Assembly: GCA_013298075.1 (NCBI GenBank)
Contig: JAAFJG010000021.1
Span: 1-64,000 of the forward strand
Source of the DNA: Cytophagales bacterium
Lineage (GTDB): Bacteria; Bacteroidota; Bacteroidia; Cytophagales; Microscillaceae
Length of the DNA stretch: 64,000 nt
Direction: 5' to 3'
Shown: positions 3,427 through 57,868 of the stretch, one piece after another
How the letters are laid out: every line of letters starts with the position of its first letter
Position numbering within the stretch: the first letter of the stretch is position 1
Notes under the pieces: generated by a model
Databases searched by the model: none
What the model saw: only the letters and a program-made list of their open reading frames with translations
Told to the model about the DNA's origin: nothing
Made by a program: the position numbers and the translations under genes

Positions 3427-3538
3427 GAAAGTAAATATTGAAAATAAAGTAAAAATATTTATAACACGATTGTTTTAGGGACTAAGTAGAAAATATTATA
3501 CCCAAAAAAACTCCCTCACCTTTAGGGAGGGCTGGGGT

Positions 3539-3700
3539 CAGTGTTGTTAAGTTCTAATATTTGTCAGGTAAATTATTTTACAAATCAAAATATAATTTGC
3601 CAAATCTATAAGATTTTCAAAAAATTATGGATTTTTTACAGAATATTATACAAGTTAATTTCTATTTTATTTGTTAAAAAAAAAGAATTTAACAACACTG
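3539..3700. repeat. Nested small element with CAGTGTTGTTAA termini, copy a
   Basis: The element starts CAGTGTTGTTAA and ends with its exact reverse complement TTAACAACACTG, so it has 12-bp perfect terminal inverted repeats. It is almost identical to the next copy at 3712-3872 and lies inside the loop of a larger MITE-like repeat. Confidence 0.8.
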
Positions 3701-3711
3701 ACCCTAACCCT

Positions 3712-3872
3712 CAGTGTTGTTAAGTTCTAATATTTGTCAGGTAAATTATTTTACAAATCAAAATATAATTTGCCAAATCTATAAGATTTTCAAAAAATTA
3801 TAGATTTTTTACAGAATATTATACAAGTTAATTTCTATTTTACTTGTTAAAAAAAAGAATTTAACAACACTG
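3712..3872. repeat. Nested small element with CAGTGTTGTTAA termini, copy b
   Basis: Second copy of the element at 3539-3700, one base shorter, separated from it by 11 bp (ACCCTAACCCT). The few differences include one base of an A run and single substitutions. Termini are again CAGTGTTGTTAA and TTAACAACACTG. Confidence 0.8.
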
Positions 3873-4070
3873 CCCTAACCCTCCCCAGCGGTGAGGGAAC
3901 TAAAAATAGGTTTTTTTGAGTGGGTAGTTTATTTTTTAGATGCTCCCTTATTTCTTTTGTTTATTACGTAAGAAAAAATGTAAGTAATAAAATTTTCTTA
4001 TAAATTAGATAGAAAAGTACTACCAAAAATAATTTATTTAGTTTGTGATTAAAATAAATTACAAATTTTA

Positions 4071-20393: not shown

Positions 20394-20600
20394 TTACTTG
20401 TTAAATTTCTTTTTAAAAAAATCGTGTGCCAGATTCGCTCTCACAGCAATAATTTCTGCATCTTTTCTCTGACTTTCTTCCCTAAAATTATCAGGGTGAT
20501 ATTTTCTCATTTGCTTTAAATAAGCTTTTCTTATCACTTCAAAATCAGTAATTCCAACGGCAATTTCTAAAGCTGCTGCGTGTTTTGTTTCTTCGTTCAT
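20394..20600 (-). CDS. Minimal J-domain protein (68 residues)
   Basis: The start is placed at ATG 20600, 16 bp after the stop of the upstream J-domain gene. A longer in-frame start at 20651 would overlap that gene. The product is nearly only a shortened J domain: AALEIAVGITDFEVIRKAYLK, then the diagnostic HPD loop (KYHPDNF) and a final helix. The HPD tripeptide stimulates DnaK ATPase. It matches the last 65 residues of the neighbouring protein closely, so the pair arose by duplication. It has no substrate-binding domain, so it may recruit DnaK to a specific target or compete with other J proteins. Confidence 0.85.
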   Translation of the reverse strand: MNEETKHAAALEIAVGITDFEVIRKAYLKQMRKYHPDNFREESQRKDAEIIAVRANLAHDFFKKKFNK

Positions 20601-20616
20601 ATTTTTAATTTTTGTT

Positions 20617-21225
20617 TTATTTTGTATTAAATTTCTTTTTAAAAAAGTCATAAGCTACATTGACTTTCATAGAGATATTTTCTGCGTGTTTTTTCTTATC
20701 TTCTTCGCTAAATTTATCAGGGTGATATTTTTTCATTTGTTTTTTATAAGCTGTTTTTATGACTTCAAAATCAGTAATTCCAACAGCAATTTCTAACAAT
20801 TCTGCGTGTTTTTTTTCCTCTGGTGAAGTAGCACTATATGGATTTGTATTTGCGTTTGTATTTTGGTTTTGTTGATTTTGGTTTGTTTGGTTATATTTTG
20901 CATATTCGCGATGTCTATAATCGCTTGTTTCTTTGGCTTTATCTTCAAATTTTTGATAATACGCATCAAATTTATCAGCCGCACTATTTGATTTTGGCTC
21001 ATATTTATATTTATATCTTTTTTCTGCTTCACCCGGATTTTGTTCGTATTCTTTGTAAGCCTTTCTAAATTCTTCTTTTTGTTTGGCGTTCAATCCTAAT
21101 TCATTCATCAAAGTTTCGATGTCTGTATTTTGTTTGTTAGGTGCTTCATAAAATCCTAATAATCTTTTTAGTTGAGTATCTTCGACTATTGCCTGAAAAA
21201 TCTCAATTAACATTTTTGTTATCAT
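20617..21225 (-). CDS. J-domain protein with unique N-terminal region
   Basis: The 202-residue protein has a C-terminal J domain (about 138-202) with HPD in KKYHPDKFSEED. A low-complexity asparagine/glutamine-rich linker (about 112-130) precedes it. The unique charged helical N-terminal region (about 1-110) resembles no family I can name. Canonical DnaJ has its J domain at the N terminus; this order is typical of specialised co-chaperones. A second, minimal J-domain gene follows 16 bp downstream and looks like a copy of this domain. An alternative start at M5 would remove four residues. Role probably DnaK recruitment; client unknown. Confidence 0.85.
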   Translation of the reverse strand: MITKMLIEIFQAIVEDTQLKRLLGFYEAPNKQNTDIETLMNELGLNAKQKEEFRKAYKEYEQNPGEAEKRYKYKYEPKSNSAADKFDAYYQKFEDKAKETSDYRHREYAKYNQTNQNQQNQNTNANTNPYSATSPEEKKHAELLEIAVGITDFEVIKTAYKKQMKKYHPDKFSEEDKKKHAENISMKVNVAYDFFKKKFNTK

Positions 21226-22033
21226 TTTATTTTATTTTTTTATGCTTATTTTGAATATTTTTTTCTTTTTTAATCTCTCAAAAATTACCCCAAAAAATCA
21301 GCCAAATAATTATTTTTGATATTTTTGGCATATTTTTTTTACATTGATGTAACTTTTGTCATTAAAAATATTCCCTATAGACGTTTTTTTTGTTGATTTA
21401 TTGTAATATGACTAATAAAAATTATAAAGTAATATTTTTTATTTTATTTTTTTGTGGATATTTTTTTATTTCATAAAAAACTATATTACAATATGAGTGA
21501 CATTTTGAATTTAACACAAAAAGGCTATTTAAAGACGATTAAGGTATTTTCAATATTTTTAAATATTTAGTATTTGGTTAAATTAATAAAAAATACTTAC
21601 GGGAATTTGTCGTATCTATTTTTAATTAATGTTTTAAATACAAAAAATTCTTTTATACTAAATTTAAGCCTTTATAGCCTTTACAACTATGTCACCCATA
21701 TTGATATTATTTTTATATTTTTATATAATTTATTGATAATCAATTACTTACATATTCAACTGATTTGAATACTAATTTTGAAGTTTGATGACTTTTCTAT
21801 TCGAAGAATAACAACGTTTACAACATTATAAGGTTATTTATTTGAAATAAGTTTATTTTATTTTGAATAAAAATAATATTTTTTTGCTGAAATAATAAAC
21901 ATTTTCTTGTATTTTCAATATTTTTTTTGTTTATTTGCAACAAATAAAACAGAAAATATAATAAAATGCCTTTAATAATCGTATCAATATAAAAATATAA
22001 AGTATAAAATATAAAGTATAAAAATATAAAACA
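21226..22033. other. 808-bp gene-free A+T-rich divergent region
   Basis: No credible gene is seen. Short open frames on both strands are phenylalanine/leucine/isoleucine-rich and reflect base composition. TTGTAATATGA at about 21400 is echoed in inverse near 21483 (ATATTACAATAT), which could pair across about 80 bp. The last 70 bp before the methyltransferase fusion consist of repeated ATAAA and TATAAAG blocks. Confidence 0.4.
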
Positions 22034-24265
22034 ATGTTCAAACAATTCAATTTTAATCAACTCAATTCGCCCGATTTCAAAGAAGACTCAGTAAGAGAAG
22101 TATTGATTTTGCCTATTTTACAACGATTGGGCTACCAACAAACACAAATTATAAGAAGTAAAACATTACAACATCCTTTCCTAAAAATAGGCTCAAAAAA
22201 AAGAGCCATCAATTTAATACCCGATTATCTTTTTAAAATAGAAGAAAATTATGCGTGGGTTCTTGATGCCAAAGCACCCAACGAAAGTATTACACAAGGT
22301 GATAATATCGAACAAGTTTTTTCCTATGCCACGCATCCCGAAATACGAACGAAATATTTTGCGCTTTGTAATGGTCGTGAATTTGCTCTTTTTCGTACCG
22401 ATGAACAAAAACCTTTTTTATATTTTTTGTTGCAAGATATAGAAAATTATTGGGAACAATTAGATAGATACCTCGCTCCTGATGCGTTTCAGGCAGGAAA
22501 ACCTTTTGAATATTCTTTGCCTAATCAAGCCATAAACACAAAAAATAATAATTTTGATTATCTTGCAAGACCACTTTTAGACGAAATTCCTGTAAGAAAA
22601 CAAGCCGCAAAACGTCATTTTGGCGTTACCGCATATTTTACCAGACAATCTTGGGATATTGTCCAAAATTATATCCGTAATTTTTCGCAGGTAGGTGATG
22701 TTGTCCTTGACCCTTTTGGTGGTTCGGGCGTTACGGCTATAGAAGCATTGATGACAGATAGAAAAGCAATACATATAGACCTCAATCCTATGTCCATTTT
22801 TATGGTAGAAAGTTTAGTCGCTCCTGTGAAAACTTCTGAATTACAAAAAAGTTTTGATAAAATAAAAACGGCTTACGAAAAATCACCGATTGCTAATTTT
22901 GATATCATTCCTAAAAAAGAACAAGAAGAACTCTTAAAAAAATATCCTTATCCTAAAAATATTTCCTTGCCCAAAGGTTCAGACGTAAAAAGCATAGAAC
23001 AACTTTTTTCGAATAAACAACTCGTACAACTTGCTTTCCTTAAATCTCTTATCAAACAAGAAAAAAATCAGAATATTCAAAAAGGACTTTTATTGGCTTT
23101 TTATAATACAGTTTCTATTTGTAATTTAACATTTCATGAAAGCCCTAAAGGCGGTGGTGCTAATTTGGTACATTATTATAGATATAGAATAGCGCCAACA
23201 CCTGCTATGCAGAATATTTTAGTAGTTTTTGAACGTAAATTTAAGAGAATTATTAGTGGAAAACAAGAAATAGAATTAAAAATAAATGACCAAACTATTC
23301 AAAATGGGCAAATATTGAAAGGAACGGCAACGGATTTAGGTTTTATCAAAAATGAAAGTGTAGATTATATTTATACAGATCCACCTTATGGCAAAAAAAT
23401 TCCGTATTTGGATTTATCAACTATGTGGAATGGTTGGTTAGATTTGAAAGTTACGCAATCAGATTTTGATTTGGAGGCAATCGAAGGAGGTGAACAAAAG
23501 AAAAGCAAAGAGCAATACAATGAATTGATACAAAAATCTATTCAAGAAATGTATCGTGTCCTAAAATTTGATAGATGGATGTCGTTTGTGTTTGCGCACA
23601 AAGACCCAGAATTTTGGCATTTGATAGTAGAAACGGCAGAAAAATGCGGTTTTGAGTATGCGGGAGCGGTTTCTCAAAAAAATGGACAAAGTAGTTTTAA
23701 AAAACGTCAAAATCCTTTTACCGTACTTTCGGGTCAGTTAATCATCAATTTTCGAAAAGTCCGTAAGCCCAAAGTAATAATGAAAGCGAATTTGGGAATG
23801 GAAATAGGTGAAATAGTAATGCAAACGATAGAGGGCGTAATTGCGAAAAATAACGGAGCGAATTTGGAGCAAATCAACGATGAATTAATTATCAAAGGTT
23901 TAGAATTAGGTTTTTTAGATTTGTTAAAAAAACAATACGTTGACCTCACTCCTATTCTTTTGGATACATTTGACTATGACGAAAAGACCGATATTTTTAT
24001 GATAAAGAAAAATAAGAAGTTCAAAACTCACGTAGATTTGAATTTAAGAGTGCGTTATTATTTGATTTCATATTTACGAAGAATGGGATTAGAGAAAAAA
24101 GAAGCACGTTTTGATGAAATTATTTTGCATATTATTCCTTTGCTTAAAAATGGTATTACTCCAGAAGAACAAACGGTTTTAAATGTATTAGAACAAATAG
24201 CTGAGCGTATCGGTAAAGATTCTTGGCAACTCAAAATAGAAGGGCAACAACAAATTTTTAAATAA
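22034..24265 (+). CDS. HsdR_N-type nuclease fused to adenine/cytosine-N DNA methyltransferase (putative single-chain R-M enzyme)
   Basis: The 743-residue protein joins two parts. Residues 1-150 resemble the HsdR N-terminal nuclease domain: PD at 63-64 and D78-A-K80 (WVLDAKAP) give the PD-(D/E)xK order. Residues about 175-590 form an amino-methyltransferase with SAM motif DPFGGSG (226-232) and catalytic TDPPYG (448-453), about 215 residues apart and in the order SAM motif then DPPY. The C-terminal third (about 600-743) is helical and may recognise DNA or be regulatory. One chain could thus both modify and cut DNA, like type IIG enzymes, though those have a different fold order. No separate specificity gene is adjacent. 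A small gene follows after 8 bp. Function in host defence is inferred. Confidence 0.8.
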   Translation: MFKQFNFNQLNSPDFKEDSVREVLILPILQRLGYQQTQIIRSKTLQHPFLKIGSKKRAINLIPDYLFKIEENYAWVLDAKAPNESITQGDNIEQVFSYATHPEIRTKYFALCNGREFALFRTDEQKPFLYFLLQDIENYWEQLDRYLAPDAFQAGKPFEYSLPNQAINTKNNNFDYLARPLLDEIPVRKQAAKRHFGVTAYFTRQSWDIVQNYIRNFSQVGDVVLDPFGGSGVTAIEALMTDRKAIHIDLNPMSIFMVESLVAPVKTSELQKSFDKIKTAYEKSPIANFDIIPKKEQEELLKKYPYPKNISLPKGSDVKSIEQLFSNKQLVQLAFLKSLIKQEKNQNIQKGLLLAFYNTVSICNLTFHESPKGGGANLVHYYRYRIAPTPAMQNILVVFERKFKRIISGKQEIELKINDQTIQNGQILKGTATDLGFIKNESVDYIYTDPPYGKKIPYLDLSTMWNGWLDLKVTQSDFDLEAIEGGEQKKSKEQYNELIQKSIQEMYRVLKFDRWMSFVFAHKDPEFWHLIVETAEKCGFEYAGAVSQKNGQSSFKKRQNPFTVLSGQLIINFRKVRKPKVIMKANLGMEIGEIVMQTIEGVIAKNNGANLEQINDELIIKGLELGFLDLLKKQYVDLTPILLDTFDYDEKTDIFMIKKNKKFKTHVDLNLRVRYYLISYLRRMGLEKKEARFDEIILHIIPLLKNGITPEEQTVLNVLEQIAERIGKDSWQLKIEGQQQIFK

Positions 24266-24273
24266 AAAAAATA

Positions 24274-24480
24274 ATGGAACAGCATTGGATTTTATTAAGT
24301 TTAGAAAAATATTGGTCAAAACAAGCAAAATTATTAGATTTTCAAAGTTTTGTATTTCAATATGTGGAGTCGATGATTATCAAAAATCGAGAAACAGGTT
24401 TAGAATTTTGGCGTTTTGTACGCAAAAATGAAAAAGATACTTTGTTAGAAGTGTATAAAAAATGGCATTTGTTGTCGTAG
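24274..24480 (+). CDS. Small protein co-transcribed with the nuclease-methyltransferase fusion
   Basis: The product has 68 residues and is not recognised. It is rich in tryptophan, lysine and glutamate (EQHWILLSLEKYW...LEFWRFVRKNEKDTLLEVYKKWHLLS) and should be helical and soluble. Its ATG lies 8 bp after the TAA of the 743-residue fusion, so the two are almost surely one transcript. By position it could be a controller, inhibitor or subunit of the putative restriction-modification enzyme, but it has no HTH motif that I can see. It could also be unrelated. Confidence 0.65.
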   Translation: MEQHWILLSLEKYWSKQAKLLDFQSFVFQYVESMIIKNRETGLEFWRFVRKNEKDTLLEVYKKWHLLS

Positions 24481-24635
24481 AATTTTTTCAGAAACGAATA
24501 AAAATATTTTTTCAGTGTCAATGTCGAAGACTTGACAAACTGAAAAAATGATATTTTTAAGAATGTATCAATCTTAGTACACTTTCTAAAAATTTAAGAA
24601 ACACTTCATAAAGTAAGGTTTATATAACCAGACAA

Positions 24636-32250: not shown

Positions 32251-32490
32251 TATTATTAACTTATTTGGGTAAATTTTGTTTTATTTTTTTATATAAAAAA
32301 ATCGAAATTCTGATATATTATTATATCCCCCCAGATAAATCTGGAGGCAATTCAGATAAATCTGGAGGCAATTCAGATAAATCTGGAGGCAATTCAGATA
32401 AATCTGGAGGCAATTCAGATAAATCTGGAGGCAATTCAAAATATATTTCAAAAAAAAAAATTTTTTCGTACAAATTTTTTAATAACCTTT
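32251..32490. repeat. Family A repeat with five 21-bp tandem units
   Basis: Five exact units of CAGATAAATCTGGAGGCAATT occupy 32332-32436. The left flank (ACTTATTTGGGTAAATTTTG) and the right flank match the copy at 57671-57868, which has three units. Read in one frame the units encode a DKSGGNS heptapeptide, but the surrounding open frame (32235-32498) is not believed to be a gene. Confidence 0.9.
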
Positions 32491-57670: not shown

Positions 57671-57868
57671 TATTATAATAACTTATTTGAGTAAATTTTG
57701 TTTTATTTTTGGTATAAAAAAAATAAAATTTTTGATACATTATTATCCTCCAGATAAATCTGGAGGCAATTCAGATAAATCTGGAGGCAATTCAGATAAA
57801 TCTGGAGGCAATTCAAAACATATTTTAAAAATATATTTTCATTTTTCGCATAAATTTTCTACCAACCA
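57671..57868. repeat. Family A repeat with three 21-bp tandem units
   Basis: Three exact units of CAGATAAATCTGGAGGCAATT occupy 57751-57813, preceded by CCTC to complete the palindrome. Flanks match 32251-32490. The open frame that passes through (57657-58013) encodes DKSGGNS three times but runs into sequence unlike a gene. Confidence 0.9.

What the first reader, a model, noticed from the sequence alone, without database searches (positions are those of the whole stretch)
22034..24480. One-chain nuclease-methyltransferase with a coupled small protein: candidate new restriction or defence system
The 743-residue protein carries an HsdR_N-like PD...DAK nuclease site (D64, D78, K80), then a SAM motif (226-232) and DPPY (449-452) about 215 residues apart. 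No specificity or separate restriction gene adjoins. Known type IIG enzymes also combine both activities in one chain, but this spacing and the long insert between the methylase motifs are unusual. A 68-residue gene follows after 8 bp and could be its controller or inhibitor. The motifs are seen; the defence role is inference.
Basis: partly seen in the sequence, partly recalled or inferred. Interest (0 to 1): 0.75.

Follow-up and report, generated by a model that had tools for sequence, protein, structure and literature searches.

The report
One-chain restriction-modification enzyme, swappable reader
This gene makes a single protein that very probably both marks and cuts DNA (a restriction-modification enzyme); it has spread among about eleven bacterial phyla and appears to change its target sequence by swapping one ~80-residue piece, while the small gene beside it is probably just a neighbour.

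Summary
ORF 22034-24265 (743 aa) has an HsdR-like PD-(D/E)XK nuclease (residues 1-150) and an amino-methyltransferase (~185-578). The nuclease model's best solved matches are HsdR (Z 11.9) and type IIG/IIL DrdV and BpuSI (Z about 11). E17, D64, [D/E]78, K80 and Q94 are kept in 80+ homologues. Homologues (58-77% identical) occur in about 11 phyla as solitary genes with no conserved neighbour.

The long insert is most likely where the target is read. Residues ~341-420 behave as an exchangeable cassette: in enzymes otherwise 92-98% identical it drops to 44-57%; nearest-neighbour conflict affects 34 of 80 sequences there, against 0-5 of 80 in non-overlapping windows.

Best reading: a self-sufficient type IIG-like R-M enzyme built not on the usual gamma methyltransferase but on a permuted N6_N4-type core resembling BREX type 3 BrxXI/PglXI. 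A sibling with the same core carries a different restriction domain at its C-terminus.

The 68-aa ORF adjoins only one other homologue and has a distant relative at an unrelated locus; a controller role is not supported. Activity, recognition site and cut position are untested. New variant of a known kind.

The parts
22034..24265 (+). 743-aa single-chain nuclease-methyltransferase, intact ORF
   Evidence: 80 homologues 58-77% identical
22034..22483 (+). residues 1-150: HsdR-like PD-(D/E)XK nuclease domain; E17, D64, D78, K80, Q94
   Evidence: model pLDDT 91; HsdR 3h1t Z 11.9, DrdV 11.0, BpuSI 10.8; conservation; HSDR_N in 56 of 67 members
22223..22273 (+). catalytic PD...DAK: D64 (22223-22225), D78 (22265-22267), K80 (22271-22273)
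   Evidence: D64 and K80 100%, D78 94% of 82 sequences, E in the departures inspected
22586..22819 (+). residues 185-262: methyltransferase motifs X and I (DPFGGSG 226-232 at 22709-22729)
   Evidence: N6_N4_Mtase profile 159-213; fold
22820..23323 (+). residues 263-430: mostly helical insert between motifs I and IV
   Evidence: model secondary structure; lowest conservation of the protein
23054..23293 (+). residues 341-420: exchangeable cassette, proposed core of the target-recognition domain
   Evidence: 34 of 80 nearest-neighbour conflicts against 0-5 of 80 in non-overlapping windows
23324..23767 (+). residues 431-578: methyltransferase motifs IV-VIII (DPPY 449-452 at 23378-23389)
   Evidence: N6_N4_Mtase profile 1-80; most conserved part
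23768..24262 (+). residues 579-743: helical C-terminal region, HTH/winged-helix-like by secondary structure only; conserved, rarely exchanged
   Evidence: fold not searched separately
24274..24480 (+). 68-aa ORF, a real but lineage-restricted small protein; probably not a functional partner
   Evidence: 67% identical copy only beside L032; 36% relative elsewhere in a congener
21272..24631 (.). segment not matched in the stretches of two congeners examined; contains the enzyme and the small ORF; synteny around it is broken

Best explanation
A self-sufficient, single-chain restriction-modification enzyme that works like a type IIG enzyme. The internal cassette (about residues 341-420), probably helped by the C-terminal helical region, reads a short DNA sequence. 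The surrounding methyltransferase core uses SAM to methylate a base there (N6-adenine is likely from DPPY; inferred), which protects host DNA. When incoming DNA carries the unmethylated site, the N-terminal HsdR-type PD-(D/E)XK domain cuts it, presumably at a short distance and by pairing of two molecules as in type IIG enzymes (inferred). No motor domain is present, so no ATP-driven translocation is expected. Lineages change specificity by recombining the cassette while nuclease and core stay constant. Shown here: domains, predicted folds, conserved catalytic residues, solitary context, patchy cross-phylum spread, cassette exchange. Inferred: cutting, methylation, site and defence.
For: Nuclease fold and residues; methyltransferase fold and motifs; purifying selection on the nuclease, dN/dS 0.03-0.08; no conserved neighbours in about 87 loci; patchy occurrence and cross-phylum tree; cassette exchange; sibling with the same core fused to a different restriction domain.
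Against: No biochemical data. The Pfam nuclease match of this single protein is below the curated cut-off. Canonical type IIG enzymes use gamma methyltransferases (PMC3874165), this one does not. One asymmetric site methylated on one strand would raise the usual host-protection question, which cannot be settled here.
Confidence: 0.82

Rival explanations
1. Mainly an epigenetic (orphan-like) methyltransferase; the nuclease domain is vestigial or only structural.
For: Methyltransferase core is the most conserved part; nuclease-free relatives of the core exist.
Against: All nuclease catalytic positions are kept across about 11 phyla and dN/dS of the nuclease is 0.03-0.08. Orphan methyltransferases tend to be kept within a clade; this gene is patchy.
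Confidence: 0.07
2. A BREX-like or other multi-gene defence component that needs partners elsewhere in the genome.
For: Best PADLOC profile is PglXI (9.9e-41); same kind of core layout as BrxXI (PMC12839542).
Against: No conserved neighbour in about 87 loci; nuclease is built in; MTase_II models score nearly as well. Partners elsewhere in the genome were not searched for.
Confidence: 0.05
3. Enzyme plus its controller or inhibitor: the 68-aa protein regulates or tames the enzyme.
For: 8 bp spacing, and the same arrangement (11 bp) in the closest homologue L032, with the small protein conserved as a protein.
Against: Not found beside the other ~85 homologues; a distant relative occurs away from the enzyme in a congener; no Pfam, NCBIfam or PADLOC match.
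Confidence: 0.06

Closest known systems
Type IIG/IIL restriction-modification enzymes (BpuSI, DrdV, MmeI, BsaXI RM subunit)
   Same: One chain, N-terminal PD-(D/E)XK nuclease of the same fold (Z 8.9-11.0 to BsaXI, BpuSI and DrdV), then a SAM methyltransferase; no motor.
   Different: They use gamma methyltransferases with a C-terminal (or separate) TRD (PMC3874165). Here the core is permuted N6_N4-type, DPPY, with the exchangeable reader between motifs I and IV.
BREX type 3 methyltransferase BrxXI/PglXI
   Same: Best PADLOC profile (9.9e-41); large insert inside the Rossmann core and C-terminal helical region described as HTH-like in BrxXI (PMC12839542).
   Different: Built-in nuclease, shorter insert, no BREX genes adjoining.
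Type I HsdR nuclease domain
   Same: Best solved fold match (3h1t Z 11.9); HSDR_N Pfam matches in most members.
   Different: No helicase/translocase domain; fused directly to a methyltransferase.
Alpha-class DNA adenine methyltransferases (Dam, D12 class)
   Same: Motif order X-I-insert-IV; Dam 2ore is among the Foldseek matches (E 9.7e-4); MethyltransfD12 match.
   Different: Sequence is closer to N6_N4_Mtase, permuted; carries a nuclease and a C-terminal region.

Membership tests
Type IIG restriction-modification enzyme | nuclease and methyltransferase in one chain | tested here: met
Type IIG restriction-modification enzyme | N-terminal PD-(D/E)XK cleavage domain | tested here: met
   DrdV, BpuSI and BsaXI domains among the best matches; PADLOC REase_MTase_IIG 1.2e-5 on the isolated domain
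Type IIG restriction-modification enzyme | gamma-class methyltransferase (order X-I-IV-VIII-TRD), as PMC3874165 defines the group | tested here: not met
   no gamma-class Pfam family among the matches at E up to 1; permuted N6_N4_Mtase core, DPPY, exchangeable segment between I and IV
Type IIG restriction-modification enzyme | cuts at a fixed distance from its site, SAM-stimulated | not testable with these tools
   needs biochemistry
BREX type 3 | BrxXI-like methyltransferase | tested here: inconclusive
   PglXI best profile but MTase_II models close behind; layout similar to that described
BREX type 3 | locus with BrxC, PglZ and BrxHII | tested here: not met
   none among the neighbours scanned in the window; no conserved neighbours across homologues
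Type I restriction system | motor domain on HsdR and separate M and S subunits | tested here: not met
   no helicase domain in the protein; no hsdM or hsdS among the neighbours scanned

The most novel reading that the evidence does not exclude
A distinct, apparently uncharacterised class of single-chain R-M enzymes built on a permuted N6_N4/BrxXI-like methyltransferase, whose specificity is set by a naturally shuffled ~80-residue cassette inside the catalytic core: a one-gene, modular enzyme carried between phyla.
Probability: 0.55. Interest if true: 0.6.

Novelty: new variant of a known kind. Interest (0 to 1): 0.47.

Why it matters
It shows an HsdR-type nuclease joined to a non-gamma methyltransferase in a self-contained, mobile gene, and it locates the DNA-reading part by its exchange pattern. 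Several recurrent cassette classes on one scaffold, some shared between phyla, give a natural experiment for linking cassette sequence to recognised motif, the kind of resource that made the MmeI family useful for engineering new specificities.

Tried and rejected
The small ORF as a controller: searched in all loci and in 57 relative genomes; found beside one homologue only. Phage or plasmid carriage: no near-full-length match in the phage or plasmid collections and two in IMG/VR, so not typical viral cargo. Empty-site comparison with congeners: synteny is broken, so insertion ends could not be defined. C-terminal region as the exchanged reader: few nearest-neighbour conflicts (1-5 of 80 in windows over 561-720), so not favoured. 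Mere loss of constraint as the cause of the variable segment: the linker 121-200 is equally variable (mean identity 0.51) yet gives 1 of 80 conflicts. PDB sequence searches: only the motif I region matched methylases. The whole-model fold search was filled by methyltransferases, so the nuclease was modelled alone. Literature searches found no characterised member; REBASE could not be searched and probably lists members as putative. A separate model of the C-terminal region was not possible (prediction cap reached).

Full report
Observation. Neighbours are PBP1C, RsmI, a DnaJ-domain protein and FtsH; no hsdS, hsdR or other restriction gene was found among those scanned.

Nuclease. The Pfam HSDR_N_2 match of the whole protein is sub-threshold (E 0.008). 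Over the family, HSDR_N matches 56 and HSDR_N_2 48 of 67 homologous N-termini at E up to 0.1, and MmeI_N matches 8. PADLOC puts the isolated domain with REase_MTase_IIG (1.2e-5). The AlphaFold2 model of residues 1-155 (pLDDT 91) matches, by VIA-align, a type I HsdR (3h1t, Z 11.9, rmsd 4.2, 123 aligned), DrdV (Z 11.0), BpuSI (Z 10.8), BsaXI (Z 8.9) and EcoR124I HsdR (Z 7.7). Foldseek also ranks DrdV first, though weakly (E 2.7e-3). E17, D64, K80 and Q94 are 99-100% conserved in 82 sequences and D78 94%, with E in the departures inspected, that is (D/E)-x-K. dN/dS of the nuclease is 0.03-0.08 in close pairs. The domain is very probably an active nuclease.

Methyltransferase. Residues about 185-578 form a Rossmann methyltransferase in the full model (pLDDT 82.5, pTM 0.80; Z up to 18.8; E. 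coli Dam among the Foldseek matches). The order is permuted relative to Pfam N6_N4_Mtase: residues about 193-252 align to profile 159-213 and residues about 443-548 to profile 1-80. The gamma-class families that define classical type IIG enzymes are not among the matches (definition from PMC3874165). The best PADLOC profile is BREX PglXI (9.9e-41), closely followed by MTase_II models. A 2026 study describes BrxXI as having a large TRD insert inside the core and C-terminal HTH domains (PMC12839542): the same general layout as here, without the nuclease.

Distribution. Genome contigs gave 80 homologues 58-77% identical. A tree of 77 rows mixes 11 phyla (20 changes where 10 is the least); the smallest well-supported larger set that holds the window has 20 rows from four phyla. 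Some rows are metagenome bins and may be mis-binned, but isolates (Thiospirillum, Dolichospermum, Anabaenopsis, Chromatium, Algoriphagus, Thermoflexibacter) are among them. The gene is found in 8 of 57 close relatives including the window's own genome, is not found in the two congeners searched (91% and 79% complete), and one family member carries a broken copy. No neighbour is conserved. This is the pattern of a self-sufficient, horizontally moving gene.

Recognition. In pairs of enzymes nearly identical elsewhere, a segment at about 341-420 is replaced. L034/L084: core 98% aa, segment 57%; nucleotides 93-94% in the flanks, 62% in the segment. L075/L077: 93% and 44%. L041/L070: 92% and 51%. 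Synonymous divergence rises too (L034/L084: dS 1.34 in the insert against 0.26-0.52 in the nuclease, motif IV part and C-terminus, and 1.06 in the motif I part), which argues for replacement by recombination rather than point selection alone. For each sequence the nearest neighbour by segment was compared with the nearest neighbour by the rest: 34 of 80 conflict for 341-420, against 0-5 of 80 for windows that do not overlap it, including an equally variable linker with 1. The segments fall into recurrent classes: for example GRSEGRGNSSIFAYYRYR in Pseudanabaena, Kapaibacterium and Parabeggiatoa with a close variant in Chromatium, and a TFHETP(K/R)GGG...YYRYR kind, which the window resembles most (57-64%), in Bacteroidota, Planctomycetota and Ignavibacteriota with a looser variant in Spirochaetota. 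This is the known behaviour of TRDs in other R-M systems (own knowledge of types I and III). The inference is that about 341-420 is the core of the target reader.

A sibling architecture. L126 (G307:C55, 766 aa) shares residues 182-734 at 33% identity, lacks the N-terminal nuclease, and has a C-terminal extension that matches a type II restriction enzyme model (4e-8). Relatives of the N-terminal domain, about 42-51% identical, occur in ~290-aa proteins without a methyltransferase. Core and nuclease are modules joined in different ways, as expected for R-M enzymes.

The small ORF. It is a real protein gene (67% identity, pN 0.20 against pS 0.63 to the L032 copy), but it sits beside the enzyme only there, and a 36% relative lies in a congener at an unrelated place, in an incomplete (79%) genome where the enzyme was not found. 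It is best read as a passenger or neighbour of this lineage.

Mechanism and limits. The best reading is a type IIG-like, single-gene R-M enzyme with a non-gamma core and a swappable internal reader. Cutting, methylation, the base methylated, the site and the defence effect are inferred. No characterised member was found in the searchable literature, and REBASE could not be searched.

Noticed in passing
window 32332-32438 and 57751-57815: Perfect 21-bp tandem repeat CAGATAAATCTGGAGGCAATT (5.1 and 3.1 copies) with similar flanks. The two-unit pattern occurs 31 times at about 16 places in the window's genome and not at all in two congeners: a lineage-specific dispersed tandem-repeat element.
   Followed up: partly
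window 20394-20817: Truncated tandem duplicate (period about 226 bp, 82% matches) of the end of the DnaJ-domain gene 20617-21225; similar sequence to both parts is found in the two congeners.
   Followed up: no
window 21986-22031: Imperfect 7-bp AATATAA repeat (6.3 copies) ending 2 bp before the start codon of the enzyme; it could affect expression, or be mere AT-richness.
   Followed up: no
L002 397-3045 and 3011-3622 (G000:C132): Elsewhere in the same genome, an 882-aa protein that fuses two methyltransferases, the first with the same X-I-insert-IV kind of core, with a convergent 203-aa ORF that might be its restriction enzyme.
   Followed up: partly
window 3538-3883: A 173-bp sequence present as two tandem copies, 97% alike, in a stretch without an ORF of 150 aa or more.
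   Followed up: no
L124 (G305:C38:22335-24562): A homologue of the enzyme broken by stop codons and a frame change in a family member, consistent with gain and loss of the gene.
   Followed up: no
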